Below, one piece after another: positions 28,962-64,000 of a stretch of DNA of 64,000 bases (its first letter is position 1; the number at the start of each line of letters is the position of its first letter). The position numbers and the translations under genes are program-made. Source of the stretch: Collimonas arenae (GTDB lineage: Bacteria; Pseudomonadota; Gammaproteobacteria; Burkholderiales; Burkholderiaceae_D); assembly GCF_000786695.1 (NCBI RefSeq), contig NZ_CP009962.1:1984001-2048000 (forward strand), written 5' to 3'. The notes under the pieces were generated by a model. That model saw only the letters and a program-made list of their open reading frames with translations. It was not told where the DNA came from and did no database searches.

Positions 28962-28981
28962 GCTTTGCATAAATGCAAAGC
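28962..28981. promoter_or_regulatory. 20-bp palindrome at the LysR gene start
   Basis: GCTTTGCAT-AA-ATGCAAAGC is a perfect 9+2+9 dyad 13 bases upstream of the LysR ATG. It embeds a T-N11-A type LysR motif. It is well placed for autorepression and for divergent control of the gene at 29104. Confidence 0.7.
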
Positions 28982-48974: not shown

Positions 48975-48989
48975 ATGAGTAATATTCAT
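48975..48989. promoter_or_regulatory. MetR box upstream of queH
   Basis: ATGAGTAATATTCAT fits ATGAG-N5-TTCAT exactly. It lies about 100 bases upstream of queH and 22 bases beyond the metR-like stop codon. Confidence 0.75.
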
Positions 48990-49010
48990 AGAGCTTGCCG
49001 CCAGGACGGA

Positions 49011-49901
49011 TCAAGCGACGACGGGCCTCTTCGCCTGCTCGATGAAAGCCCGCAGATAATCGACGCCCACATCTGCCTCGCGTGCGCCCAGGTAGATGTT
49101 CTTGGCAATGCCGTTCTTGCCGAGCCGTACCGGAACCACATCCATCGTGCCAGCGTATTCCTGCACCAGCCAGCGCGGCAGCGCTGCCACGCCGCGCCCG
49201 CTGGCGACCATCTGCAACATGATGTCGGTGGTCTCGATGGCTTTATGGCGCTTGGGCGTGATGCCGGCCGGCGTGAGAAACATGGTGTAGATGTCAAGGC
49301 GATCGACCGGCACTGGGTAAGTCACCAGTATCTCGTTGGTCAACTGTTTGGGCTTGACGTACTCCTCCTTGGCGAGCTTGTGGCTGCCGGCTACGACCAA
49401 CACTTGCTCGTAGTCGAACACCGGCTCGAACACCAGGCCGGGCTTGTCCAGCGGATCGGGCGTGACCAGCAAATCGATTTCATAGCCGAACAAGGCACCG
49501 ATGCCGCCAAACTGGAATTTCTGCTTCACGTCCACGTCCACATCTGGCCACGCCGCCAGGTAAGGCGACACCACCTTTAGCAACCACTGGTAACAAGGGT
49601 GGCACTCCATGCCAATGCGCAGCGCGCCACGCTCGCCCTGGGCGAACTGGTGCAGCCGTTCTTCCGCTAATGCCAGCTGCGGTAACACCCGGTTGGCCAC
49701 GGCCAGCAGATATTGCCCGGCCTGGGTCAGACGCAGGCTGCGGCCTTCGCGCAGCCAGATGTCGGTGCCCAGCTGCTGCTCCAGCTTCTTCATGCTGTGG
49801 CTTAAAGCCGACTGCGTCACATGGAGCACGCCGGCGGCTGCAGTCAGCGAACCTTGCTTTTCCACCTCTTGCACGATGGATAAATGGATGCGATCAATCA
49901 T
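49011..49901 (-). CDS. metR: LysR-family regulator, MetR type
   Basis: A 296-residue LysR regulator. The helix-turn-helix contains SLTAAAGVLHVTQSALSHSMKKLE. The effector domain has the MetR hallmark IGMECHPCYQWLLKVVSPYL, followed by FDYEQVLVVAGSHKL and YPVPVDRLDIYTMFLTPAGI. E. coli MetR uses homocysteine as co-activator for metE and other methionine genes. The ATG at 49901 is chosen; the longer frame begins with TTG. A dyad matching the mesX and queH sites starts six bases upstream. It is the likely activator of the local methionine genes. Confidence 0.9.
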   Translation of the reverse strand: MIDRIHLSIVQEVEKQGSLTAAAGVLHVTQSALSHSMKKLEQQLGTDIWLREGRSLRLTQAGQYLLAVANRVLPQLALAEERLHQFAQGERGALRIGMECHPCYQWLLKVVSPYLAAWPDVDVDVKQKFQFGGIGALFGYEIDLLVTPDPLDKPGLVFEPVFDYEQVLVVAGSHKLAKEEYVKPKQLTNEILVTYPVPVDRLDIYTMFLTPAGITPKRHKAIETTDIMLQMVASGRGVAALPRWLVQEYAGTMDVVPVRLGKNGIAKNIYLGAREADVGVDYLRAFIEQAKRPVVA

Positions 49902-50321: not shown

Positions 50322-50632
50322 GGTGGGTCAGTTTTCGGCGTAAATCAATACTGTCGCTGCATAGAATAACAAGGCTCACCGGTTTAGCGCGCCACGATTT
50401 CGCGATACAGCACCGTGACCGGAATCCACTTGGGCCGGGCCGCCGCCTGTCGCTTGCGCAGATAATCCCTGTGCGTATCAAGTTTGCAAGCACCTTTCAC
50501 ATTGCGTTCGTATTTCGGTACTTCCTCTAGTGCCAGATGCCGCCGCACCGTGTTCACCGTGCGGCCAGCTTCCACCGCGATCTGCAGCATGCTCAATCCA
50601 TGCTTCTTCAATAATTGAATTTCCACATACAC
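50322..50632 (-). mobile_element. Degenerate IS21-like element (IstA N-terminus plus end sequence)
   Basis: Minus-strand 50632-50384 encodes about 82 residues of an IstA-like N-terminus: EIQLLKKHGLSMLQIAVEAG, TVNTVRRHLALEEVPKYERN, then a YLRKRQAAARPKWIPV segment. It stops at IVAR where full-length proteins continue, with no catalytic domain. Beyond it, 50322-50355 resembles the stretch at 42167-42200. It is an internally deleted insertion sequence forming the right edge of the mosaic region. Confidence 0.65.
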
Positions 50633-50735
50633 CTCTTTGGGTATCAAGGACGTTACGAAAAGCAGCCTTCTTCTCAAATTGGTGTGTCAACTTTCAATCG
50701 CTGCGCTGTATCAGTTTTTTGCATCCGCTGCTGAC

Positions 50736-50755
50736 ACCTGTAAAGGTTTACAGGT
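50736..50755. promoter_or_regulatory. lux-box-like operator upstream of the PKS gene
   Basis: ACCTGTAAAGGTTTACAGGT is a perfect 9+2+9 dyad. Its seven-base arms ACCTGTA/TACAGGT are identical to those of the Vibrio fischeri lux box. If LuxR-type activation places the box centre at -42.5, transcription starts near 50788 with a -10 around 50776-50781, where AATACT occurs. The polyketide synthase ATG is at 50910. No luxR or luxI gene is in the window. Confidence 0.7.
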
Positions 50756-50909
50756 TGTTTTCCACTTGGATGAAAAATACTATCTCCCGGCCAAGATAGC
50801 TATGTAACATTTTTTCACATTGAAAGTCATCTGGCGTAATGACCAGAACGTGGCGCTGTCCGCAATAAATTTCATGTCGTAGCGTGATCACTAGATTGGG
50901 GTTCATAGA

Positions 50910-53900
50910 ATGGATGTTGCTGTTATCGGAATCGCGTGCCGGTTTCCCGGCGCCAATGATCACCATATGTTCTGGGCCAATCTGGCCAAACGCAAAGCCA
51001 GTATTTCCGTTGTGCCTTCCAGCCGCTGGGACTGGAAATCCTACTGGGGTGATTCCCGGACCGAGGCCAACAAGAGCCTGAGCAAGTGGGGTGGCTTCAT
51101 CGAGCGTGTGGATGCTTTCGACAACCAGTTCTTCGGCGTGCTGCCCAAGGTCGCCCAGAGCATGGATCCACAGCAGCGCATCATGCTCGAACTGACCTGG
51201 TCATGCCTGGAGGACGCAGGCATTCCGCCATCGCAGCTACGGGGAAGAAAGGTCGGCATCATCGTCGGCGTATTCAATCACGACTACAAGGAATTGCAAG
51301 AGCGCGATGCGCCATCGATCGAGGCGCACAATTCCACCGGCACGGCGACCGCCATGATTGCCAATCGCGTGTCGCACTATTTCGATTTCCGCGGTCCCAG
51401 CATTCCGATCGACACGGCCTGCTCCAGTTCGCTCAACGCCATCCACAGCGCAATCCAGGCAATGGAGTACGGCGATTGCGAGATGGCGCTGGCTGGCGGG
51501 ATCAATCTGCTGCTGACGCCGACACGGCATATCTCGTTTTCCAAGATGGGCATGTTGTCGCCGACCGGGACCTGCAAGACTTTCGACGACAGCGCCGATG
51601 GCTACGTGCGCGGAGAAGGCGCTGGTCTGCTGCTGCTCAAGCCATTGGATAAAGCGCTGTCAGATGGCGACTCTATATATGGTGTAATTAAAGGCAGCGC
51701 CGTCAATCATTGCGGCGCAACCTATACGCTGACCTATCCCAGCCCGCGGGCTCAGGCGGAGGTCATCGTTGCTGCGCATGAACGGGCAGGCATTCCGATC
51801 GGCAGCGTCGGCTATATTGAAGCGCATGGAACGGGAACGCCGAAGGGCGATCCTATCGAATTCGAAGGCTTGCTGACAGCCTTTCAGATCCTGGCCGATA
51901 AGCAAGACATCCGCTTGGATAATGCGTTCTGCGGCTTGAGTTCAGTCAAGACTAATATCGGTCATCTGGAAGCTGCAGCGGGGGTTGCGGGCGCGATCAA
52001 AGTCTTGATGTCATTCAAGCATCGCACCTTGCCGGCGCTGCACGATTTTACAACACTGAATGCGAAGATTTCGATCGACGAAACGCCGTTCTATATTCTC
52101 GGCGAAACGCGCGAGTGGACCCAGGAAGATAAGAATAAGGATCAGCCGCGCCGGGCTGGCGTCAGTTCGTTTGGATTCGGCGGCACCAACGCCCACCTGG
52201 TGCTGGAAGAAGCGCCGCTATCGCAAACTTCGCAGAAAGCGCTGCCGTCGCGGTCCAAGCGTCCGTCGTATCTGATCGCCTTGTCGGCGAAGAGTAACGA
52301 AGCGTTGCAGAAAAAGCAGGAAGATATCCTGGCGTGGCTGCACAATGACGCTGGGCACAGCGATCTGTTGGATATCAGCGCCACCTTGTTGACAAGACGC
52401 GATCACTTTCAGCATCGGTTCTCCTGCATTGCAGCCAATGTTCAGGAATTGATCGAAAAACTCGACCAGTCCATCGCTATCGACGCGGGCGCCAGCGTAA
52501 AGAGCCAGGAGCCGCCCGCACCAGACGCACTTCAGGCGGGACAGAAATTGCTCAAGCAGCTCGGCTCCAAGCCGGGTTTGAAGGGCGCGAAATACCCGGT
52601 GGCGCTGCAACAGTTGGCAGACCTGTATGTCGCAGGCGTCGACCTGCCGTGGATTGCACTGTTCAGAGAGGCTGTTGTAAAGCCAGTTTCGTTACCGACT
52701 TATCCCTTCTCGCGCGACAGCTTCTGGATCGCGGAAAGTGACGGCGCGGATGATATGGACAGGCGGCAAGTGCTGCATCCGGCGCTGCAGCGTAGCGTTT
52801 CCATGATTGGAACGCAGCGCTATGCATCTACCTTTACCGGCAAGGAATTTTTCCTGGCCGACCATGTGATCAGGACCCAGCAGGTGTTGCCGGGCGTGGT
52901 GTACCTGGAGATGGTCCGGGCCGCGATTGTCGATGCATTGGGCGCAGACACCGGGGCGGTACAACTTTCCGATGTGTTGTGGATGCGGCCTCTTGAGGTC
53001 GCAGGCGATCCGGTTTCGGTGCATGTGGAGTTGCGCCCTGAGAGCGCTGATTCTGCCACTGTCGACCAGCAGGGCGTCACCCGCCTGGCGTTCCGGGTGA
53101 CGAGCGCCGAGGCCGGCGCACTCCCGCAGATCTATTGTCGCGGCAGCGTCGACATCGTGCCGGCCGAAAATGCTGCAGCGCTTGATATTGCAGGGCTGAA
53201 GAGTGCCTGTGACGGACCGGTGTATTCCGCAGAGCAGTGCTATCGATCACTGGCAAATCTGGGTTTGAATTACGGCCCTGCCCAGCAGGCAATCGTTCAG
53301 CTTCACAGCGGTACGCATCAGTGCGTCGCGGAGCTGTCCCTTCCTGCGCAACTGGTAGCAGGCAGTGCGCCCTATGTCATTCATCCCAGTACAGCAGATG
53401 CGGCGCTTCAGGCTGCGGTGGCGTTTGTCGACGGCGCCGGGGTTTCCGATGCGTCGGGCACGACGTTTTTACCCTTCGCCCTGGATCGACTGGATGTGTA
53501 CCACCGTTGTACGGCTGCCATGCACGTCTGGGTGCGCTATGCACCGGGGTATTCCGCTGGCGAATCAAACAAAAAGGTCGATATCGATGTGATCGATGCG
53601 GATGGCCGCGTATGCCTGGCGTTTCGAGGGCTCAGCATCCGGCCGATGGCAGCGAATGTGTCATTCGCGCCGTCCATGGCGCAGTCTTCCGAGACACGCC
53701 TGTCGCAAGAGCTCCAGCAGAGCTTGTACACCCCGGTCTGGACCACGCAGCCGATCGCTGGCGCTACGTCCGAGGGGGCCATCGAGCATCTGCTCCTGAT
53801 GGGTGATCCTAGTGACGTAAGCTGGCTGACGCATCAGCTTCGGGCTACTTCGCAGTTTGCGTCGACCCGGATCGAGCATTTATATTTCGGATCCGAGGCT

Positions 53901-56900
53901 GCTGTGGAAGATGCCGGCGCACTGCATGTCAGGCCGGGCCGTCTGGAAGACTACGAGGCGGCTGTCGCGGCACTAGTGGCCAAGGGCGGCAAGCTTGATC
54001 ACGTACTGTTGATTGCACCGCGTTTGACTAGCGATATTGCGCAAACTGCATCGGACAGCCTGGATTCTCAGGTTTGCAAGAGTGCTCAAAACCTGTTTTC
54101 TCTCGTCAAGGCGATGATGCGTGGCACCAAGCGCGCAAAATTCCTTCACCTGGTTTCCAGGCAGCCGCAACGTCCTGAATACCAGGGCCTGAGCGGACTC
54201 TATAAAACTTTGAGAATCGAGAAACCCAGCTATAGCGGCCGGGTCGTACAGTGCGATCTGGCAGAATTGTCCGCGCAGCGCCTGGCAGAGCTGGTTTTTA
54301 AAGAATTTAACACTGCCGATAAATATGTCGATGTCAGCTACAGCGGCGATGTCCGGTCAGTCAGAAAATTTCGCCAGCTCGACGCCAATTCTTTACCGCC
54401 GGCTGTCTCTGCCGACTTGACGGCCAGCTTGCGCAAAGAAGGTGTTTACCTCATTACGGGGGGCATGGGTGCGCTGGGCCTGATTTTTGCGCGCTATTTA
54501 TGTGAGCGCTATCAAGCAACGGTGTTCCTGACCGGTCGTTCCGCCCCGACCGAGCAGCACCGTCTTACGCTCAATGAGCTGTCGTCGCTGGGAGGCCATG
54601 CCTCGTTCCTGACCTGCGATGTCGTCAACCGTGACGATGTGCGTCGCGCGGTCGATAGCATTCATGCGGCAGGCCATCAACTCAACGGCGTGATTCATTC
54701 CGCCGGTGTCATCGAGGATGATTTCATCCTCCGCAAGAGTCCGGAATCGTTTGCCCGTGTGGTCGCGCCAAAGACGCTGGGGACTTGGCATCTTGATGTC
54801 GAAACGCGAGATGAACCGCTGGATTTCTTCGCGCTGTTTTCTTCCGTTACCGGCGTGCTGGGCAATATCGGGCAGTGCGATTACGGTTTCGGCAACGCCT
54901 TCGAGGACTATTTCGCGCACCAGCGCGACGCCTCGCGCCGGCAAGGATCGCGTAACGGCAAAACTCTGTCGGTCAACTGGCCGTACTGGAAAGAAGGTGG
55001 GATGCGGCTGAGCGATAAGGAAGAAGAAAACCTGCATCGCAGCTTCGGCCTGGTCCCTTTGCTGAGCGGACAAGGGATAGAGATATTCGAATACGCTCTC
55101 ACCCGGTTGCATAGCCAGCTGGTAGTGATGCCTGGCGATGCCGCCAAAGTGCAGGAAGTACTGGGTGTCGTTGCCGTGCCAGTGCCGGTTGCAGCTGTCG
55201 TTGCTGCCGCCTTGCCTGCAAAAATACACGCCGCGTCATATGCACACAGTCAACCCCTGCTAACAACGGGTGATCGGAGCGCGGCGGTTTCGCGCTATCT
55301 GGCTGAGCTATTTGCTGCGCAACTGCAGATTTCATCGGATTTTGAACTGGGCCGCTCGTTCCGGGAATACGGCTTCGATTCGATCGTGATGATCGACCTG
55401 GTCAATTTGATGGAGAAAAAATTCGGAAGTTTGCCTAAGACATTGTTCTTCGAACACCAAACCTTGGGCGAACTCACGGCCTTCTTCATCGAGCATCACG
55501 CCGAGTCATGCGGGGTCATCGCGCAAGCGGAGTTGGGCGGCCAATCCACCGCCGAGCTGGTGCGTTCCGAGAGCGCTGCCATGGATGAGCGCACGCCGGC
55601 GACGCTGGCCGCTGCGGGCAGCACGCCTTCAGCCGCTGCCGCACATGACGACATCGCTATCATCGGCTTGTCGGGACGTTATCCCGAGGCTGAAAGCCTG
55701 GAGCAATTCTGGGAAAACCTGAAATTCGGCCGTGACTGCGTGGTCGAGATTCCGTCCGACCGCTGGGATATCGAGACCACGTTCCAGCCTGGACCGGCGG
55801 TGATCGGCAAGACCTACAGCAAATGGGGCGGCTTCCTGAGAGGGGTCGATCAGTTCGATCCACTGTTCTTCAATATTTCGCCCAAAGAGGCGGAGAACAT
55901 GGACCCGAACGAAAGGCTGTTCCTGGAGACGGCTGCGCTCACCATCGAAGACGCGGGTTACACCGCGGATAAGCTGGCTTCACCGGCAGGGGTCCGAGAA
56001 AATCCGGTCGGCGTCTATGTCGGCTTGATGTGGGGCGACTACCAGTTGCATGGCGTGGAAGGACAGCCGCACACCTGGGCCACGCCGCATTCGTTCTACT
56101 GGGCGGCGGCCAATCGGGTTTCGCACTACTTTAATTTCTCCGGTCCCAGCATTACGATCGACACCGCATGCTCATCGTCGCTGACCGCAATTCACCTGGC
56201 GTGCGCGGCAATCCGCTCTGGCGAAATCGGCGTCGCTATCGCCGGCGCGGTCAATCTTTCGCTGCATGTCAACAAATACAATCTGTTGTCGGATATGCAT
56301 TTCCTGTCCACCGACGGTCGCTGCCGCAGCTTCGGCGACGGCGGCGACGGCTATGTGCCGGGCGAGGGCGTCGGTGCAGTGCTGCTCAAGTCGTTGGCGC
56401 AGGCGCGCGCCGACGGCGACCACATCTACGGCATTATTCGTGGCACCTCGGTCAACCACGGCGGCAAGACCTCGGGCTTTACCGTGCCCAATCCGAAACG
56501 ACAGGCCATGCTGGTCCAGGATGCGCTGCAGGTAGCTGGCGTGAACCCGCGTCATGTCAGCTATCTGGAGGCACATGGTACCGGCACCAGCCTTGGCGAT
56601 CCGATCGAGATCGCAGGTTTGAATAAAGCCTTCGCGCAACAGGAGCACCAGTATTGCGCCATCGGCTCGGTGAAGTCGAACATCGGTCACCTGGAGGCGG
56701 CATCCGGGATTGCAGGATTGACCAAGATCCTGCTGCAGATGAAGCACCGTATGCTGGTGCCTTCGATCCAGTCGGACGTGCTCAACCCGTACATTGATTT
56801 CAAAAACTGCCCCTTCTATGTGCAGCGCGAGTTGCAGGAATGGAGCCGTCCGCTGCTCGACGTCACGGATCAGGACGGCAGCATCCGGCGCATGGAGCTG

Positions 56901-59900
56901 CCGCGCATGGCGGGTATCAGTTCATTCGGCGCGGGGGGTAGCAACGCCCACTTGATCGTCGAGGAATACGCAGAACCGGCAGGCTCTAACGATCAGGATC
57001 GCGAGCGTCCGGCGTTGATCGTGCTATCGGCAAGAAAAGAGACTGCGCTGAAGGCGATGGCCGAGAATTTAGCGGCCTTCGTCGAGGTCAACCCGGAATT
57101 ATCGCTGCAAGACGCGGCTTACACCTTGCAGACAGGTCGCGTCGCCATGGAGCACCGGCTGGCAGTGGTGGCCGTGCGTGGCGCAGAACTGGTCGCTGCG
57201 TTGCGGACATACAGTAGCGGTAGCGATGCATACACCGACTTGTTCAGCGGTCATCGTGATCAGGCCAAAGCTGCTGCATCGCCGCTGCCGGTGGCGCAGT
57301 GGCTGGCCCAGGGCGAGCTGCGTCATCTGGCCAAAGCCTGGGTCGGCGGCCATGCCGTCGAATGGACGCAGCTGCACGCGCCACAGGCGCGCAAACGCTT
57401 GTCGCTGCCAGGCTACGTATATCAGCGCCAGCGCTATTGGGTTACCAAGCCTGGCGTTGTCGCTACTAGCGTGGCGTTGCATCCGCTGATCGACAGCAAT
57501 GTCTCGACCCTGGAAGAACAGACATTCCGCAAGACTTTCCGCGCTGAAGAATTCTTCCTGCGCGACCATCAGCTCGGCAGCAATCGCATCCTGCCTGGCG
57601 TAGCCTATCTGGAGATGGCGCTGGCCGCCGGACGGCTCGGCAGCAGCGGTCCGGTGAGCGCCTTGCGCGATGTGCAATGGCTGAAGCCGATCTTCGTCAA
57701 TCAAGGCAGCAATACCTTCGATATCGGCCTGATTCCGGCGACCGACGGCATCCATTTCGAGATCTATCAAACGCATGGCGATGCGCGCCAAATCTATTCG
57801 CAAGGTGTGTTGGAGTTCGAGGTGTCGGCCCCATCGGCCCCTGCGGGCGCAGTTGACCTGCACGCCATCATCGGCCGCTGCCAAATGCAGAGCCGCGAAG
57901 CGATCGCCGCCGCGTTCACTCAGATGGGTTTCAACTTCGGCCCCAGCTTCCAGGTATTCGACATTCTGCATTTCAATGCGGACGAAGCGCTGGCGAAACT
58001 AAACCTGCCGACACAGCTTGATGTCCCGGCTGCTGCGGGCTTTACGCTGCCGCCGTCGCTGTTGGACGGCGCAGTCAGGACCGCATTGGGTATCGGCGGC
58101 CTGGGGACGGCGCTACGCGGTGTGCATGCGCCGGTACGGCTGCAGCGCATTGAAGTGTTGCTGCCGATCGGCGGTAGTTGCTTCGCCCATGCGCGTCGCG
58201 CCGATGCCGGGGCGAGCCACGGCGATCAGCACAGTTACGACATCGACCTGCTGGATGCTTCCGGACAAGTGCTGGCGCGGATTGAACAACTGGTGATCCA
58301 GGCGGCGCCGTCTCTTGGCATCAGCCGATCTCTCGTCAGGGGTAGCGAACCTGTGCGGCGCGTTGCTATGGCAGCTACCACGGGCATCACGGCTATCACG
58401 TCGGTCTCGGTGCAGCCGCGCCTGAGCGCCGCCACCAGCAACGCAGTTAGTCCGGAAACACTGCAAGCCGCCGTGGTGACTCACCTGGTGGAGTTATTGT
58501 CGACGGTGACTAAGGTTCCGGCCGAGCAGATCGACCCGAAAAGCGCGCTGGAAAATTACGGCATCGATTCGGTGATGATTCTTGCGCTCACCGAAAAGCT
58601 GCATCCGACCTTCGGTGAAGTGCCGAAGACCTTGTTTTACGAATATCAGGATCTGCACAGCCTGTCGGAATACTTTCTCGACAGCCATGCAGAGCAGGTA
58701 CGCGGTCTCGCGGCCGCATCGCCAGTCCTCGCTGCGGCGTCGGCACCGCAACTGCAATCGATCGACGTCATGAGCGCCCCAGTCGGTCAGGATGTGCTAC
58801 AAGCCGCCGTGGTTAGTCATCTGGTCGCATTGCTGTCGACGGTGACGAAAGTTCCGGCCGAGCAAATCGACCCGAAAAGCGCACTGGAAAATTACGGCAT
58901 CGATTCGGTGATGATTCTTGCCCTTACCGAAAAGCTTCATCCAACCTTCGGTGAAGTGCCGAAGACTTTGTTTTACGAATATCAGGATCTGCACAGCTTG
59001 TCGGAATACTTCCTCGACAGCCATATGGAGCAGGTGCGTGGTCTCACGGCCGCATCGCCGAACCATGGTGCGGTGCCAAGCCCGCAGGCGAAAGCTGCGG
59101 CGGTGATTGAGGTTGCCGGCGTTGGTCTGGCGGAGATACGCTCACGCATATTAGCCTGCTTGCAGAAAATCATGGGCGAGGAAGCTCGGAATTTCTCAGA
59201 AGCTACGGCATTGACCGAATGGCTGATCGATCCGGTTAGCCATGTCAGGTTGCAGCATGCGTTGCGGCAGGAATTTGGCGGCATCGACATTGGCTCCATG
59301 TACCGCCATGAAAGCCTGGACGATTGGGCTGCAGCGATCCAGGCAGCATCGCCGCAGCACGTCGGTCGCGCCCAGGCAACCGCAGTGGACGTGAGTGCCG
59401 ATGGTGTGCAGGCCGGTGCTGATGCCGAGGCATGGCCGAGCGCGCCGCGCACTAAGTCGAGAACGCCTGATTTGTCGCGATTTTCTCAACGATTCGCGCA
59501 GCCACGCGGTATGGCGATGTCGGCCATGCATCAGGATCAGGAGATTGCCATCATCGGTCTCAGCGGCCGCTATCCGGGTGCCAGCAACGTCGAGGAATTC
59601 TGGCAGAACCTGAGTGCGGGCCGGGACAGCATCAGCGAAATTCCGTTATCGCGCTGGGATCACCAGAAGTACTACCATCCCGACCGCAATGCCAAGGGAC
59701 AGGTATATAGCAAGTGGGGCGGCTTCATCGACGATATCGATCAGTTCGATGCAGGCTTCTTCAGTATTTCCCCGCGCGAAGCGGAGATCACCGATCCGCA
59801 GGAACGCCTGTTCCTGCAGACCGCCTGGGAGTGCCTGGAAGATGCCTGCTATACCCGGCAGGCGCTGAAGGATCGCGACGTCGGCGTATTCGTCGGTGTG

Positions 59901-62900
59901 ATGTGGGGACACTACGAATCCATCGACGTGTCCGAACAGCAGCGCAAGTATGGCCGGCCGGCTGCGTTGTCTTCCTCGATCGCCAATCGGGTGTCTTATT
60001 TCTTGAATCTGAATGGTCCCAGCGTAGCGCTCGATACGATGTGTTCGTCCTCGCTGACCGCCATCCATCTGGCCAGCCAGGCGATCCGCAATGGCGATTG
60101 CCAGATGGCGATTGCCGGCGGCGTGAACCTGATCGTCCATCCGCTCAAGTATCAGTTATTGGCGCAAGGACAATTTCTCTCCACCGACGGACGCTGCCGC
60201 GCATTCGGCGATGGCGGCGACGGCTATGTACCGGGCGAGGGTGTCGGTGCGGTGCTGTTGAAGCCGCTCAGACAGGCGATCGAAGATGGTGACCAGATCC
60301 ACGCTGTCATCAAGGCTTCAGCCGTCAATCACGGCGGCAAGACCAACGGTTATACCGTGCCCAGCCAGGTCGCACAGAGCAATGTGATCGGCAAGGCGCT
60401 GCGTCGCGCCGGCTGGCACCCGAGTTCGATCGACTACATCGAGGCGCACGGCACCGGTACTTCACTGGGCGATCCGATCGAAATTGCCGGTCTGTCGAAA
60501 GCCTTCAACTCTGCCGCACAGGATATGGAAAAACAGGCTGGCGGTGGCGCAGCTGCGATGACGCCGCAGTCCTGCCGCATCGGTTCGGTGAAATCCAATA
60601 TCGGCCACCTGGAATCCGCAGCCGGCATAGCGGCGCTGACCAAGATTCTGTTGCAAATGCGTCATCGGCGTATTGCACCGTCACTGCATTCAGCGTTGTT
60701 GAACACGAATATCGATTTTTCAACGACCCAGTTCCGTGTGGTGCAGGCGCTCGAAGACTGGCATGCGCCAGCTCGTCCGGGCGCTGGCGGCAGGTCGGCA
60801 AGCAGGCGCGCGGGCATCAGCTCATTCGGAGCGGGTGGCGCGAATGCGCACATTCTTATCGAAGAATACGAGGCTGCGACCGCTATTGCGATGCAGCCTG
60901 TTTCGGCATCGCTGCCCCAGCCGTTGTTGTTCGTGCTGTCGGCCGACAGCGAGGAACGTCTGGCGCTATACATCGACCGTGTGCTGGCGTTCCTGGTCCA
61001 GCACCAGCAGGGCGACAGCAGGCTCGATCTGCGCTCCCTGGCCTATTCGTCGCTGATAGGACGCGAGGCGATGAATGAACGGCTCGCTGTCGTGATGTCG
61101 AGCCTCGACGACCTGATCGACGCACTTGTTCAGTACCGGCGGGGCGTTGTCGTGAGCCGGGCGCAACGCGGCAGCGTCAAGAAACACAGCGAAAAACTCG
61201 ATGCCATCCTGGATGACACGCAACGCGACGCGATGGTGCGCTCCTTGTTACAGGATAAACGGCTGCCACAACTCGCCAAAGCCTGGGTGTCGCTGCTTGA
61301 TATCGAATGGAGTCGCTACGCCGATCTGTTGTTCGCCGCCGATCCGGCTTTGTCGGGGCGCACAGCCTCGCTCCGTCGTCTCTCGTTCCCGGTGATGCCG
61401 TTCTTGACAAAACGGCATTGGGTGGAAGAAAAGCCAGTCGCGACCGACGCCAGCCGTCACGATGCACTGCATCCTCTGCTCGACCGCAATGTATCGACAC
61501 TGACACAGCAGCGTTATGCCAAGCTCTTGACCGGTCAGGAGTTCTACCTGCGCGATCACATCGTCGAAGCGGGCCAGAAGCGGGTGATCCTGCCTGGCGT
61601 CGCCTACCTTGAAATGGCGCGCGCCGCCGGTGAGCTGGCGATGGGCGAGGAATGGTCGGTGGACCGGATACGCAATCTGATCTGGATCCAACCGGTCGAG
61701 ATCAAGGACGCTGCCGAAGAAGTGACGGTGACGCTGACGCAAGTCGACGATGCAGTGGAATTCAACATCACCCGCAGCGCGACCCGGGACGCCAGCGTCG
61801 AAGGAGAATTGCATTATCGTCGCCGTGACGAAGCAGCGGTGGCGGATGAGTGGCTCGACCTCGATGCCCTGCGCAACCGCGGCCTCATCGAGGAAGACAA
61901 GCAAGCAATCTATGACAGCTTCCGTCGCATGGGTTTCCACTATGGCAGCAGCTATCAGGTTACCGAGACGCGCTATCGCATGGCAGACGGCGCGCTCAGC
62001 CGCCTCAGACTGCCGGAGTTTTTGCGGCATGACGCCATGGCTTTCTGTCTGCATCCGTCGCTGTTCGATGGCGCGCTGCGCACCTGCCTGGCCATCGGTT
62101 CAGAGTCATTGGATGCAACGGTGCCGCTGGTGCCGTTTGCGCTGGGCGAACTGGAGATCCGGCACCCGCTCACCGAGGAATGCTATGCATACGCGACCGC
62201 AGTGCCCGATGCCGAAATGCAGGCCAATTTGCAGCCCGATCTGCACAGCGGCCTGCGTAAATACAACATCGCCGTTACCGATTGCGATGGGCGTGTGCTG
62301 ATCAAGCTTTGGAACTTCTCCGCTCGTCAGTTAACCAAGGCAGAGCCGCAAGCCTTGCGTACTTTGCAGTACTACGGCTATGACTGGCTGGAGACCCCCG
62401 CACTGCCTGCACTAGCGTCAGCGCTCTCAGACCGCACTGTTTTGGTGATCGCAGACGATACGTCGCTGGCCGAAACATTGGCACTTCGCTTTGCATCATC
62501 CGTCAATGTCGTGCTGGCGCAGTCCGGCGCTGCATTTTCCAGGCTGGGCGAGCGGCGCTATTGCTTCGATCCGGCCAATCCTCACTCCTATACGGAACTG
62601 CTGACCCATCTGGCCAGTCAGGATCTGCGGCCGTCGCATATTACCCATTACTTGCAAGATGTGCAGGACTTCACTACGGCGGTCGATCATGACGACGTGC
62701 AGAGCCTGCGTCGCGGGATGTTGTCGATGCGTCACCTGTTCAATGCACTTGAACAGACGATGCCCGGCCAGAGCATACGTTGCGCCTATGTATTCGAGGC
62801 CGCACGCGAAGCGATCCAGCCGCAGCACGATGCGATCTCCGGCTATGCCAGATCGTTGCTGACCATTAATCATCGCTTCGAATTGTTCACGGTCCGGGCC

Positions 62901-64000
62901 GAGCGCTCTAAAACGGCTGAACTTGCCGCCATGTTGCAGAATGAATTTGAGGCATCCGGGACGCTTGCCGGTCTTGAAATAGCTCTCTGGAACGGGCGCC
63001 GTTACCTGCGCAGCCTGGCGCCTCTCGATCCATCCGGCATGTCGCAGAATGCGCTTCCGCTCAAGTCGCGCGGCGTGTATCTGATCACCGGCGGCGCCGG
63101 CAAGCTTGGCCTGGTGCTGGCTCGTTACCTGGCTACGCACTACCAGGCAAGATTAATACTGAGCGGACGCAGCGAGCGGCTGCACGACGAAGCACTGGCG
63201 CAGATCGAGGCGCTGCGCGCCGCAGGCGCCGATGTGCATTACCACTGCTCCGATATCGCCCAAGCCGGGCAGGCCGATGCTTTGCTTGCTGTCGCCAAAC
63301 AGGTCTATGGCCGGCTCGATGGCATCCTGCATTGCGCGGGGGTGGCCAGCGATAAGCTGATAACGGAGTTGGATGAGGTTGCCTTTGCCGAATTGCTGGC
63401 GCCGAAGATCGACGGCCTGCTGGCGCTGGACCGCGCTACCCGGAGTGAGCCGCTGGATTTTTTCGTCAATTTCTCTTCGGTCTCTGCGATGCTGGGCGAC
63501 CTGGGTTCCGGCGCTTATGCCGTAGCCAATCGCTTCATGGATAGCTACGCCGTATGGCGCGACGCGCTGTGCAAGCAAGGTCAGTGCTTTGGCAAGAGTC
63601 TCTCGATCGGCTGGCCTTTGTGGGCGACCGGGGGCATGAAGATTTCGGCTGAGGATGCATCGCTATTCAGCTTCTCGGGAATGTCAGCACTTACTGAGGC
63701 CGAAGGTATCGAAGCCTTTGAACGTCTGTTGCGTGGAGATATGCAGCAGGTACTGCTAGCCGTGGGTGACGCAGCAAAAATCGGGCGTGCGCTGCGCGTG
63801 CACGTCGAACAGGCGCCAGCCAGTGTTCAGGCGACGCCGCGCGCGCTGCCGTTTAAGACGGTTTCGGCGGCGCGTACGACCAGTGACAGTAACATGACGG
63901 CCTTGCCTTCCGGCGCATCCTCCGATGGACTATCAGATCAACAGCGCCGCGCCGAGCACTATCTCAAGGAACGACTGGGGATTGTGGTGAAAGTGGCGGC
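50910..64000 (+). CDS. Trans-AT modular polyketide synthase (partial, runs off the window)
   Basis: At least 4363 residues; no integrated acyltransferase (no GHSxG), so malonyl units must come from a separate AT. Order with approximate positions: KS1 50910-52215 (Cys171); KS-flanking linker; DH1 52773-53645 (His652, Asp830); KR1 53720-55150 (ITGGMGALG); ACP1 55290-55490 (Ser1491); KS2 55650-56975 (Cys1754); DH2 57479-58310 (His2220, Asp2386); ACP2 (Ser2554); ACP3 (Ser2666); degenerate ACP 59115-59340 (Pro2775 replaces Ser); KS3 59541-60885 (Cys3045); DH3 61470-62335 (His3550, Asp3720); KR3 62370-63790 (ITGGAGKLG); start of ACP at about 63930. All KSs keep HGTGT and NIGHLE. Starting with an elongating KS implies an upstream chain donor elsewhere. 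The product is unknown. Confidence 0.93.
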   Translation, partial: MDVAVIGIACRFPGANDHHMFWANLAKRKASISVVPSSRWDWKSYWGDSRTEANKSLSKWGGFIERVDAFDNQFFGVLPKVAQSMDPQQRIMLELTWSCLEDAGIPPSQLRGRKVGIIVGVFNHDYKELQERDAPSIEAHNSTGTATAMIANRVSHYFDFRGPSIPIDTACSSSLNAIHSAIQAMEYGDCEMALAGGINLLLTPTRHISFSKMGMLSPTGTCKTFDDSADGYVRGEGAGLLLLKPLDKALSDGDSIYGVIKGSAVNHCGATYTLTYPSPRAQAEVIVAAHERAGIPIGSVGYIEAHGTGTPKGDPIEFEGLLTAFQILADKQDIRLDNAFCGLSSVKTNIGHLEAAAGVAGAIKVLMSFKHRTLPALHDFTTLNAKISIDETPFYILGETREWTQEDKNKDQPRRAGVSSFGFGGTNAHLVLEEAPLSQTSQKALPSRSKRPSYLIALSAKSNEALQKKQEDILAWLHNDAGHSDLLDISATLLTRRDHFQHRFSCIAANVQELIEKLDQSIAIDAGASVKSQEPPAPDALQAGQKLLKQLGSKPGLKGAKYPVALQQLADLYVAGVDLPWIALFREAVVKPVSLPTYPFSRDSFWIAESDGADDMDRRQVLHPALQRSVSMIGTQRYASTFTGKEFFLADHVIRTQQVLPGVVYLEMVRAAIVDALGADTGAVQLSDVLWMRPLEVAGDPVSVHVELRPESADSATVDQQGVTRLAFRVTSAEAGALPQIYCRGSVDIVPAENAAALDIAGLKSACDGPVYSAEQCYRSLANLGLNYGPAQQAIVQLHSGTHQCVAELSLPAQLVAGSAPYVIHPSTADAALQAAVAFVDGAGVSDASGTTFLPFALDRLDVYHRCTAAMHVWVRYAPGYSAGESNKKVDIDVIDADGRVCLAFRGLSIRPMAANVSFAPSMAQSSETRLSQELQQSLYTPVWTTQPIAGATSEGAIEHLLLMGDPSDVSWLTHQLRATSQFASTRIEHLYFGSEAAVEDAGALHVRPGRLEDYEAAVAALVAKGGKLDHVLLIAPRLTSDIAQTASDSLDSQVCKSAQNLFSLVKAMMRGTKRAKFLHLVSRQPQRPEYQGLSGLYKTLRIEKPSYSGRVVQCDLAELSAQRLAELVFKEFNTADKYVDVSYSGDVRSVRKFRQLDANSLPPAVSADLTASLRKEGVYLITGGMGALGLIFARYLCERYQATVFLTGRSAPTEQHRLTLNELSSLGGHASFLTCDVVNRDDVRRAVDSIHAAGHQLNGVIHSAGVIEDDFILRKSPESFARVVAPKTLGTWHLDVETRDEPLDFFALFSSVTGVLGNIGQCDYGFGNAFEDYFAHQRDASRRQGSRNGKTLSVNWPYWKEGGMRLSDKEEENLHRSFGLVPLLSGQGIEIFEYALTRLHSQLVVMPGDAAKVQEVLGVVAVPVPVAAVVAAALPAKIHAASYAHSQPLLTTGDRSAAVSRYLAELFAAQLQISSDFELGRSFREYGFDSIVMIDLVNLMEKKFGSLPKTLFFEHQTLGELTAFFIEHHAESCGVIAQAELGGQSTAELVRSESAAMDERTPATLAAAGSTPSAAAAHDDIAIIGLSGRYPEAESLEQFWENLKFGRDCVVEIPSDRWDIETTFQPGPAVIGKTYSKWGGFLRGVDQFDPLFFNISPKEAENMDPNERLFLETAALTIEDAGYTADKLASPAGVRENPVGVYVGLMWGDYQLHGVEGQPHTWATPHSFYWAAANRVSHYFNFSGPSITIDTACSSSLTAIHLACAAIRSGEIGVAIAGAVNLSLHVNKYNLLSDMHFLSTDGRCRSFGDGGDGYVPGEGVGAVLLKSLAQARADGDHIYGIIRGTSVNHGGKTSGFTVPNPKRQAMLVQDALQVAGVNPRHVSYLEAHGTGTSLGDPIEIAGLNKAFAQQEHQYCAIGSVKSNIGHLEAASGIAGLTKILLQMKHRMLVPSIQSDVLNPYIDFKNCPFYVQRELQEWSRPLLDVTDQDGSIRRMELPRMAGISSFGAGGSNAHLIVEEYAEPAGSNDQDRERPALIVLSARKETALKAMAENLAAFVEVNPELSLQDAAYTLQTGRVAMEHRLAVVAVRGAELVAALRTYSSGSDAYTDLFSGHRDQAKAAASPLPVAQWLAQGELRHLAKAWVGGHAVEWTQLHAPQARKRLSLPGYVYQRQRYWVTKPGVVATSVALHPLIDSNVSTLEEQTFRKTFRAEEFFLRDHQLGSNRILPGVAYLEMALAAGRLGSSGPVSALRDVQWLKPIFVNQGSNTFDIGLIPATDGIHFEIYQTHGDARQIYSQGVLEFEVSAPSAPAGAVDLHAIIGRCQMQSREAIAAAFTQMGFNFGPSFQVFDILHFNADEALAKLNLPTQLDVPAAAGFTLPPSLLDGAVRTALGIGGLGTALRGVHAPVRLQRIEVLLPIGGSCFAHARRADAGASHGDQHSYDIDLLDASGQVLARIEQLVIQAAPSLGISRSLVRGSEPVRRVAMAATTGITAITSVSVQPRLSAATSNAVSPETLQAAVVTHLVELLSTVTKVPAEQIDPKSALENYGIDSVMILALTEKLHPTFGEVPKTLFYEYQDLHSLSEYFLDSHAEQVRGLAAASPVLAAASAPQLQSIDVMSAPVGQDVLQAAVVSHLVALLSTVTKVPAEQIDPKSALENYGIDSVMILALTEKLHPTFGEVPKTLFYEYQDLHSLSEYFLDSHMEQVRGLTAASPNHGAVPSPQAKAAAVIEVAGVGLAEIRSRILACLQKIMGEEARNFSEATALTEWLIDPVSHVRLQHALRQEFGGIDIGSMYRHESLDDWAAAIQAASPQHVGRAQATAVDVSADGVQAGADAEAWPSAPRTKSRTPDLSRFSQRFAQPRGMAMSAMHQDQEIAIIGLSGRYPGASNVEEFWQNLSAGRDSISEIPLSRWDHQKYYHPDRNAKGQVYSKWGGFIDDIDQFDAGFFSISPREAEITDPQERLFLQTAWECLEDACYTRQALKDRDVGVFVGVMWGHYESIDVSEQQRKYGRPAALSSSIANRVSYFLNLNGPSVALDTMCSSSLTAIHLASQAIRNGDCQMAIAGGVNLIVHPLKYQLLAQGQFLSTDGRCRAFGDGGDGYVPGEGVGAVLLKPLRQAIEDGDQIHAVIKASAVNHGGKTNGYTVPSQVAQSNVIGKALRRAGWHPSSIDYIEAHGTGTSLGDPIEIAGLSKAFNSAAQDMEKQAGGGAAAMTPQSCRIGSVKSNIGHLESAAGIAALTKILLQMRHRRIAPSLHSALLNTNIDFSTTQFRVVQALEDWHAPARPGAGGRSASRRAGISSFGAGGANAHILIEEYEAATAIAMQPVSASLPQPLLFVLSADSEERLALYIDRVLAFLVQHQQGDSRLDLRSLAYSSLIGREAMNERLAVVMSSLDDLIDALVQYRRGVVVSRAQRGSVKKHSEKLDAILDDTQRDAMVRSLLQDKRLPQLAKAWVSLLDIEWSRYADLLFAADPALSGRTASLRRLSFPVMPFLTKRHWVEEKPVATDASRHDALHPLLDRNVSTLTQQRYAKLLTGQEFYLRDHIVEAGQKRVILPGVAYLEMARAAGELAMGEEWSVDRIRNLIWIQPVEIKDAAEEVTVTLTQVDDAVEFNITRSATRDASVEGELHYRRRDEAAVADEWLDLDALRNRGLIEEDKQAIYDSFRRMGFHYGSSYQVTETRYRMADGALSRLRLPEFLRHDAMAFCLHPSLFDGALRTCLAIGSESLDATVPLVPFALGELEIRHPLTEECYAYATAVPDAEMQANLQPDLHSGLRKYNIAVTDCDGRVLIKLWNFSARQLTKAEPQALRTLQYYGYDWLETPALPALASALSDRTVLVIADDTSLAETLALRFASSVNVVLAQSGAAFSRLGERRYCFDPANPHSYTELLTHLASQDLRPSHITHYLQDVQDFTTAVDHDDVQSLRRGMLSMRHLFNALEQTMPGQSIRCAYVFEAAREAIQPQHDAISGYARSLLTINHRFELFTVRAERSKTAELAAMLQNEFEASGTLAGLEIALWNGRRYLRSLAPLDPSGMSQNALPLKSRGVYLITGGAGKLGLVLARYLATHYQARLILSGRSERLHDEALAQIEALRAAGADVHYHCSDIAQAGQADALLAVAKQVYGRLDGILHCAGVASDKLITELDEVAFAELLAPKIDGLLALDRATRSEPLDFFVNFSSVSAMLGDLGSGAYAVANRFMDSYAVWRDALCKQGQCFGKSLSIGWPLWATGGMKISAEDASLFSFSGMSALTEAEGIEAFERLLRGDMQQVLLAVGDAAKIGRALRVHVEQAPASVQATPRALPFKTVSAARTTSDSNMTALPSGASSDGLSDQQRRAEHYLKERLGIVVKVA
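58459..59060 (+). repeat. Tandem duplication of ACP coding sequence in the PKS
   Basis: Two copies of a 336-base (112-codon) unit encode ACP2 and ACP3. The stretch from PAEQIDPKSALENYGIDSVM through YEYQDLHSLSEYFLDSH is almost identical in protein and differs mainly at third codon positions in DNA. This points to duplication or recent gene conversion. Confidence 0.92.

What the first reader, a model, noticed from the sequence alone, without database searches (positions are those of the whole stretch)
50736..50755. A canonical lux box in front of a giant trans-AT polyketide synthase gene
The dyad ACCTGTAAAGGTTTACAGGT has the same length and the same seven-base arms as the Vibrio fischeri lux box (ACCTGTAGGATCGTACAGGT); only the central six bases differ. 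It lies about 155 bp upstream of the PKS start, with a -10-like AATACT at the distance expected for LuxR-type activation. This predicts that an acyl-homoserine-lactone or orphan LuxR regulator turns on this pathway. No luxR/luxI gene is in the window, so the regulator would be in the rest of the cluster or elsewhere. Chance occurrence of a perfect 9+2+9 dyad of this exact form is low but was not computed.
Basis: partly seen in the sequence, partly recalled or inferred. Interest (0 to 1): 0.85.

Follow-up and report, generated by a model that had tools for sequence, protein, structure and literature searches.

The report
Quorum-sensing switch before solanimycin-type cluster
A 20-base DNA switch in front of a large antifungal-type gene cluster in a soil bacterium is nearly identical to the switch in front of that bacterium's own quorum-sensing signal gene, which predicts that the bacteria make this compound when they are crowded.

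Summary
The dyad ACCTGTAAAGGTTTACAGGT is at 50736-50755, 154 bp before the start codon of a trans-AT polyketide synthase. The genome is Collimonas arenae Cal35: both replicon lengths match the published ones. The box before luxI agrees with the PKS box at 19 of 20 bases; 0.0003 such matches are expected by chance in the genome.

Boxes with the same AAGGTT centre stand before 10 of 10 Collimonas luxI genes. The cluster occurs in 2 of 15 Collimonas genomes, and both carry the identical PKS box. Upstream homology begins four bases before the box, so the box seems to travel with the cluster. Gene and domain order match the solanimycin cluster of Dickeya solani, which is reported to need AHL for transcription.

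Best reading: a LuxR-AHL operator that switches on a solanimycin-type operon, a new member of a known kind. Binding and activation are untested. An unidentified regulator with similar site arms exists in the genus and is the main rival.

The parts
50736..50755 (+). lux-box-like operator ACCTGTAAAGGTTTACAGGT
   Evidence: 20/20 conserved in C. humicola; scores within the range of luxI boxes
50778..50783 (+). -10-like hexamer TACTAT (TATTAT in C. humicola), 22 bp after the box
   Evidence: read; not reported by the consensus scan; no mapped transcription start
50756..50909 (+). leader between box and PKS start codon
   Evidence: 116 of 161 alignment columns identical to C. humicola
50910..63998 (+). 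trans-AT PKS gene, SolA-like; continues beyond the window (5418 aa in all)
50384..50677 (-). N-terminal remnant of an IS21-family transposase, directly left of the box
   Evidence: NCBIfam NF033546, E 2.5e-11, profile positions 1-82 of 294, below the family cut-off

Best explanation
The dyad is an operator of the chromosomal AHL quorum-sensing pair of Collimonas arenae Cal35. LuxI (C1:3000095-3000769) makes an acyl-homoserine lactone. At high cell density the LuxR protein (C1:2999219-2999929) binds AHL, dimerises on the box at 50736-50755 just upstream of a -10-like TACTAT, and recruits RNA polymerase to a co-oriented gene series (PKS, SolB-, SolC-, SolD- and SolE-like genes, a giant NRPS, an ABC transporter) that makes a solanimycin-type product. 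Shown: the box, the pair, the near-identical luxI box, conservation with the cluster, gene and domain order of the solanimycin type. Inferred: LuxR binding, activation rather than repression, a single transcript, the product class.
For: One luxI in the genome, next to a luxR. The luxI box differs from the PKS box at 1 of 20 positions (0.00028 matches that good expected in the genome). Boxes with the AAGGTT/AACCTT centre precede 10 of 10 genus luxI genes at a near-constant distance. Of 39 genus sites with similar arms, 11 have this centre: 9 luxI and 2 PKS. On a matrix of 5 distinct luxI boxes the PKS box scores 28.0, within the leave-one-out luxI range 25.4-30.1; the best of 18 other distinct sites scores 24.2. 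Cluster marker SolE is in 2 of 15 genomes at E <= 1e-60, the same two that have a second zero-mismatch box. Upstream homology to C. humicola starts four bases before the box. LuxR aligns end to end with a Quorum-sensing control repressor and RhlR chains, LuxI with an AHL synthase. PMC11288634 passages: Cal35 and C. humicola make AHL. PMC9765074 section 10: solA of D. solani needs ExpI or added OHHL for transcription.
Against: No binding, expression or transcription-start data. Sites with similar arms exist in 4 luxI-negative Collimonas genomes (6 sites, none with the AAGGTT centre), so a regulator with overlapping specificity probably exists. The Lysobacterales relative L079 (SolA N-terminus 59% identical) has LuxR-type proteins but no CTGT-N10-ACAG site in the 926 bp before its PKS, so such a box is not general in this cluster family. 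Only two independent cluster copies could be compared. No sigma-70 promoter was listed by the scan, and the dyad was listed as terminator-like.
Confidence: 0.83

Rival explanations
1. The box belongs to the unidentified second regulator of Collimonas (perhaps the LuxR solo at C1:148911, perhaps not a LuxR protein) that recognises ACCTGT[ACT]A-N4-T[AGT]ACAGGT sites, and AHL plays no part.
For: 28 of 39 genus sites lack the AAGGTT centre, 6 of them in luxI-negative genomes. PF03472 proteins occur in 14 of 15 genus genomes, several of them solos. The solo is 29% identical to LuxR over 190 residues and has a similar helix-turn-helix by eye.
Against: The PKS box has the AAGGTT centre that 10 of 10 luxI boxes have and 0 of the 28 other sites have.
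Confidence: 0.1
2. LuxR binds the box but represses the operon, with AHL relieving repression.
For: Some LuxR-type regulators repress (recalled); no activation was measured here.
Against: Box position beside a -10-like element with no good -35, and AHL-dependent transcription of the related cluster in Dickeya. The same box before luxI suggests autoinduction (recalled for LuxI/LuxR pairs).
Confidence: 0.1
3. The dyad works as an RNA hairpin or intrinsic terminator rather than as a protein-binding site.
For: Listed as terminator-like: 8 pairs, 3 G-C pairs, then TGTTTTCC. RNA fold -12.1 kcal/mol, 9 of 200 shuffles fold as well.
Against: The scan found 2 such sites where shuffles give 1.7. The luxI box folds weakly (-5.4 kcal/mol) and has no T-run. 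Identity with luxI boxes is unexplained.
Confidence: 0.03
4. The dyad is a chance sequence.
For: Perfect 9+2+9 dyads of any sequence are expected 0.28 times per window; 2 were seen.
Against: This sequence is expected 0.015 times per genome, matches the luxI box 19/20 and is conserved 20/20 in a second species.
Confidence: 0.01

Closest known systems
Vibrio fischeri lux box
   Same: 20-bp dyad with ACCTGTA/TACAGGT arms next to a -10-like element
   Different: the six central bases; the regulator pair lies 0.97 Mb away rather than beside the operon
CepR/CepI-type quorum sensing (PMC4690342, passages: the pair of six other Collimonas genomes is about 40% similar to CepIR)
   Same: luxR next to luxI, box in the luxI promoter, one AHL synthase
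   Different: box centre AAGGTT shared by 10 of 10 genus luxI genes; AHL species of Cal35 not found in the passages read
Solanimycin cluster of Dickeya solani MK10 (PMC9765074: abstract, passages, sections 7, 8 and 10)
   Same: SolA domain order; SolB, SolC, SolD (89 aa), SolE order; NRPS after them; AHL needed for solA transcription in D. solani
   Different: one 6516-aa NRPS instead of SolF, SolG and SolH; a partial condensation domain at the PKS end; ABC transporter and PPTase follow; no P450 among the genes scanned; product unknown; the Dickeya cis site is not given in the text read
Mupirocin cluster (passages of PMC3069032)
   Same: polyketide cluster with lux boxes and quorum regulation (trans-AT type recalled)
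   Different: the mup cluster has its own quorum cassette; here the likely regulator is the chromosomal pair outside the cluster

Membership tests
lux box (operator of a LuxR-AHL regulator) | about 20-bp dyad with a CTGT-N10-ACAG core | tested here: met
lux box (operator of a LuxR-AHL regulator) | LuxR with autoinducer-binding and helix-turn-helix domains in the genome | tested here: met
lux box (operator of a LuxR-AHL regulator) | AHL synthase in the genome | tested here: met
   AHL production reported for the strain
lux box (operator of a LuxR-AHL regulator) | matches the site in the cognate luxI promoter | tested here: met
   19/20
lux box (operator of a LuxR-AHL regulator) | centred about 42 bp before the transcription start (recalled) | tested here: inconclusive
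   TACTAT would put the centre near -44, but no start is mapped and the scan lists no promoter
lux box (operator of a LuxR-AHL regulator) | bound by LuxR and AHL-responsive | not testable with these tools
   needs gel shift and reporter
solanimycin-type cluster | SolA domain order KS-DH-KR-T-KS-DH-T-T-KS-DH-KR-T-KS without AT | tested here: met
   against the order printed; the first T was read by eye, not by Pfam
solanimycin-type cluster | epimerase, aminotransferase, ACP and AT genes in this order after the PKS | tested here: met
   the ACP-like 89-aa protein has no Pfam hit and rests on length, place and reading
solanimycin-type cluster | three NRPS genes SolF, SolG, SolH and a P450 | tested here: not met
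   one 6516-aa NRPS with 5 AMP-binding stretches; no P450 among the 6 genes after the NRPS that were scanned (not every ORF there was scanned)
solanimycin-type cluster | makes solanimycin | not testable with these tools
   product unknown, hence 'solanimycin-type' only

The most novel reading that the evidence does not exclude
A mobile solanimycin-type antifungal cluster was wired into Collimonas quorum sensing by a luxI-like operator at its left edge, independently of the AHL control reported in Dickeya. The same kind of weapon would then have come under density control more than once, here through the host's own core LuxR rather than a cluster-borne regulator.
Probability: 0.4. Interest if true: 0.6.

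Novelty: new member of a known kind. Interest (0 to 1): 0.48.

Why it matters
It turns a biosynthetic cluster of unknown product in an antifungal soil bacterium into a testable prediction: add AHL or delete luxI, and the operon and its product should rise or fall. It names a likely trigger for the cluster. It gives a genus-wide Collimonas lux-box motif tied to luxI. It sets up a comparison of how one family of antifungal clusters comes under quorum control in unrelated hosts.

Tried and rejected
Chance: rejected on sequence, not on symmetry. Terminator: weak. Reading every ACCTGT-N8-ACAGGT site as a quorum target: rejected. Cal35 has 5 exact ones where 0.31 are expected, but sites of that kind without the AAGGTT centre also occur in luxI-negative genomes.

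Search for other SolA promoters: in a class-wide draw of 369 genomes, 6 had a match to the SolA N-terminus at E <= 1e-170, one of them Cal35 itself; at most 2 candidates a genome were scored. The foreign matches were 38-51% identical. The closest, G498, reads as a cis-AT PKS (by eye), and 24 genomes of its family gave matches in 6, at 35-51%. So no Dickeya solA promoter was examined. The Lysobacterales MAG has no such box. Paraherbaspirillum soli has a SolA N-terminus 80% identical, but its DNA was not reached. The paper on carenaemins of Cal35 (PMC8313283) is not held. Literature: searches listed no paper whose title or abstract start reports this box; these are listings (one search shows 20 of 286 papers, one search shows 15 of 18), so a report in a body text could be missed. 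PADLOC scan of the 201-aa ORF at 48975-49580: nothing.

Full report
OBSERVATION. The dyad is present exactly as described at 50736-50755, 154 bp before the ATG at 50910 of a reading frame that leaves the window. It is the only exact ACCTGTA-N6-TACAGGT in the window and in the genome. The base-composition expectation is 0.015 per genome and 0.00017 per 64 kb. The symmetry by itself is unremarkable: 9+2+9 dyads are expected 0.28 times per window, and a second one exists at 28962.

IDENTITY. The genome has contigs of 5,603,532 and 41,440 bases, the lengths published for Collimonas arenae Cal35 (whole text of PMC4290994). PMC9765074 Table 1 lists LT85_1869 of C. arenae as the best match of Dickeya solani SolA; this is presumably the gene in the window, but locus tags were not checked.

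THE REGULATOR. The genome has one PF00765 AHL synthase and three PF03472 LuxR proteins, one directly before luxI. That LuxR has the autoinducer-binding and the GerE domain and aligns nearly end to end with a Quorum-sensing control repressor (3szt) and RhlR chains; LuxI aligns with an AHL synthase (3p2f). [quoted passage not shown] PMC11288634 (passages) reports AHL production by strain Cal35 and by C. humicola.

THE MATCHING BOX. Two sites in the genome have one mismatch to ACCTGTA-N6-TACAGGT. One, ACCTGTAAACCTTTACAGTT at C1:3000015-3000034, lies between luxR and luxI; on the other strand it differs from the PKS box at one base of 20. The second, at 5440455, matches the PKS box at only 16 of 20 and is not near a known quorum gene. 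A 19-of-20 match to the luxI box is expected 0.00028 times in the genome. In the genus, luxI was found in 10 of 15 genomes, and all 10 have a box with the AAGGTT/AACCTT centre 59-63 bp before the luxI ATG (the script prints 56-60 bp to the codon before it). The box of G195 departs most from the rest.

SPECIFICITY OF THE CENTRE. The pattern AMCTGTNANNNNTNACAGKT gives 39 sites in 14 of 15 genomes, against 1 for the reversed-pattern control. Of these, 11 have the AAGGTT/AACCTT centre: 9 are luxI boxes and 2 are the PKS boxes of Cal35 and G175. The other 28 do not; 6 of them are in luxI-negative genomes (G083, G061, G130, G153), so another factor probably recognises similar arms. A matrix from the 5 distinct luxI boxes scores the PKS box 28.0, within the leave-one-out luxI range 25.4-30.1; the best of 18 distinct other sites scores 24.2. 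The matrix is small, so these scores only rank.

CONSERVATION. The marker SolE occurs at E <= 1e-60 in 2 of 15 Collimonas genomes, Cal35 and G175. These are also the only two with a second zero-mismatch match to AMCTGTAAANSTTTACAGKT. G175 and the named C. humicola record read the same in the aligned stretch, so they count once. Between Cal35 and C. humicola the box is 20/20 identical, the leader 116 of 161 columns, the first kilobase of coding sequence 924 of 1000. The 300 bp before the box give 155 of 324 columns, which I judge to be no homology (no shuffle was run); only the four bases next to the box agree. Left of the box, Cal35 has an IS21 transposase remnant and G175 an RNase H-like gene (named by reading). 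The box therefore seems to sit at the left edge of the shared segment.

THE OPERON. After the PKS (5418 aa) come, on the same strand, an epimerase/dehydratase (342 aa), an aminotransferase (423 aa), an 89-aa ACP-like protein, an AT didomain (635 aa), a 6516-aa NRPS with five AMP-binding stretches, two ABC transporter genes and a phosphopantetheinyl transferase. The PKS domain order equals that printed for SolA, plus a partial condensation domain at its end. The fused NRPS and the genes after it differ from solanimycin, so the product may differ.

MECHANISM. TACTAT (50778-50783) begins 22 bp after the box, which would place the box centre near -44, as in LuxR class-II promoters (recalled). I infer activation by LuxR-AHL. 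In D. solani an expI mutant shows no appreciable solA transcription, and OHHL restores it (PMC9765074 section 10); that section gives no cis site. The more distant Lysobacterales copy lacks a box although its genome has LuxR-type proteins, which suggests that the wiring differs by host.

LIMITS. No binding or expression data; two independent cluster copies; a second regulator of unknown identity; the Dickeya and Paraherbaspirillum promoters were not seen.

Noticed in passing
G000:C1:4269416, 2590316, 443446, 5440455 and other genus sites, 28 in all: A second class of palindromes with ACCTGT/ACAGGT-like arms but without the AAGGTT centre occurs across Collimonas, also in luxI-negative genomes. 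Sites lie near a conserved lipoprotein gene and a csgG-like operon (named by reading) and between divergent type VI secretion genes (VasE and VipA families). The regulator is unknown.
   Followed up: partly
G175:C11:926043 (L119): A site identical to the Cal35 type VI site lies before a large Tc/SpvB-like reading frame (named by reading).
   Followed up: no
L010:10092-10769 (C1:3000092-3000769); L031, L032: LuxI of Cal35, G117 and G175 is about 40 residues longer at the C-terminus than LuxI of six other genus members (184-188 residues); G197 matches in two overlapping pieces near that tail.
   Followed up: no
window 28962-28981: Another perfect 9+2+9 dyad, GCTTTGCATAAATGCAAAGC.
   Followed up: no
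window 50384-50677: N-terminal remnant of an IS21-family transposase directly left of the box, consistent with insertion of the cluster here.
   Followed up: yes
L029 (G087:C373:3903-3922): A genome of another genus in the family has ACCTGTTAAGGTTTACAGGT between two divergent reading frames that do not look like PKS genes.
   Followed up: no
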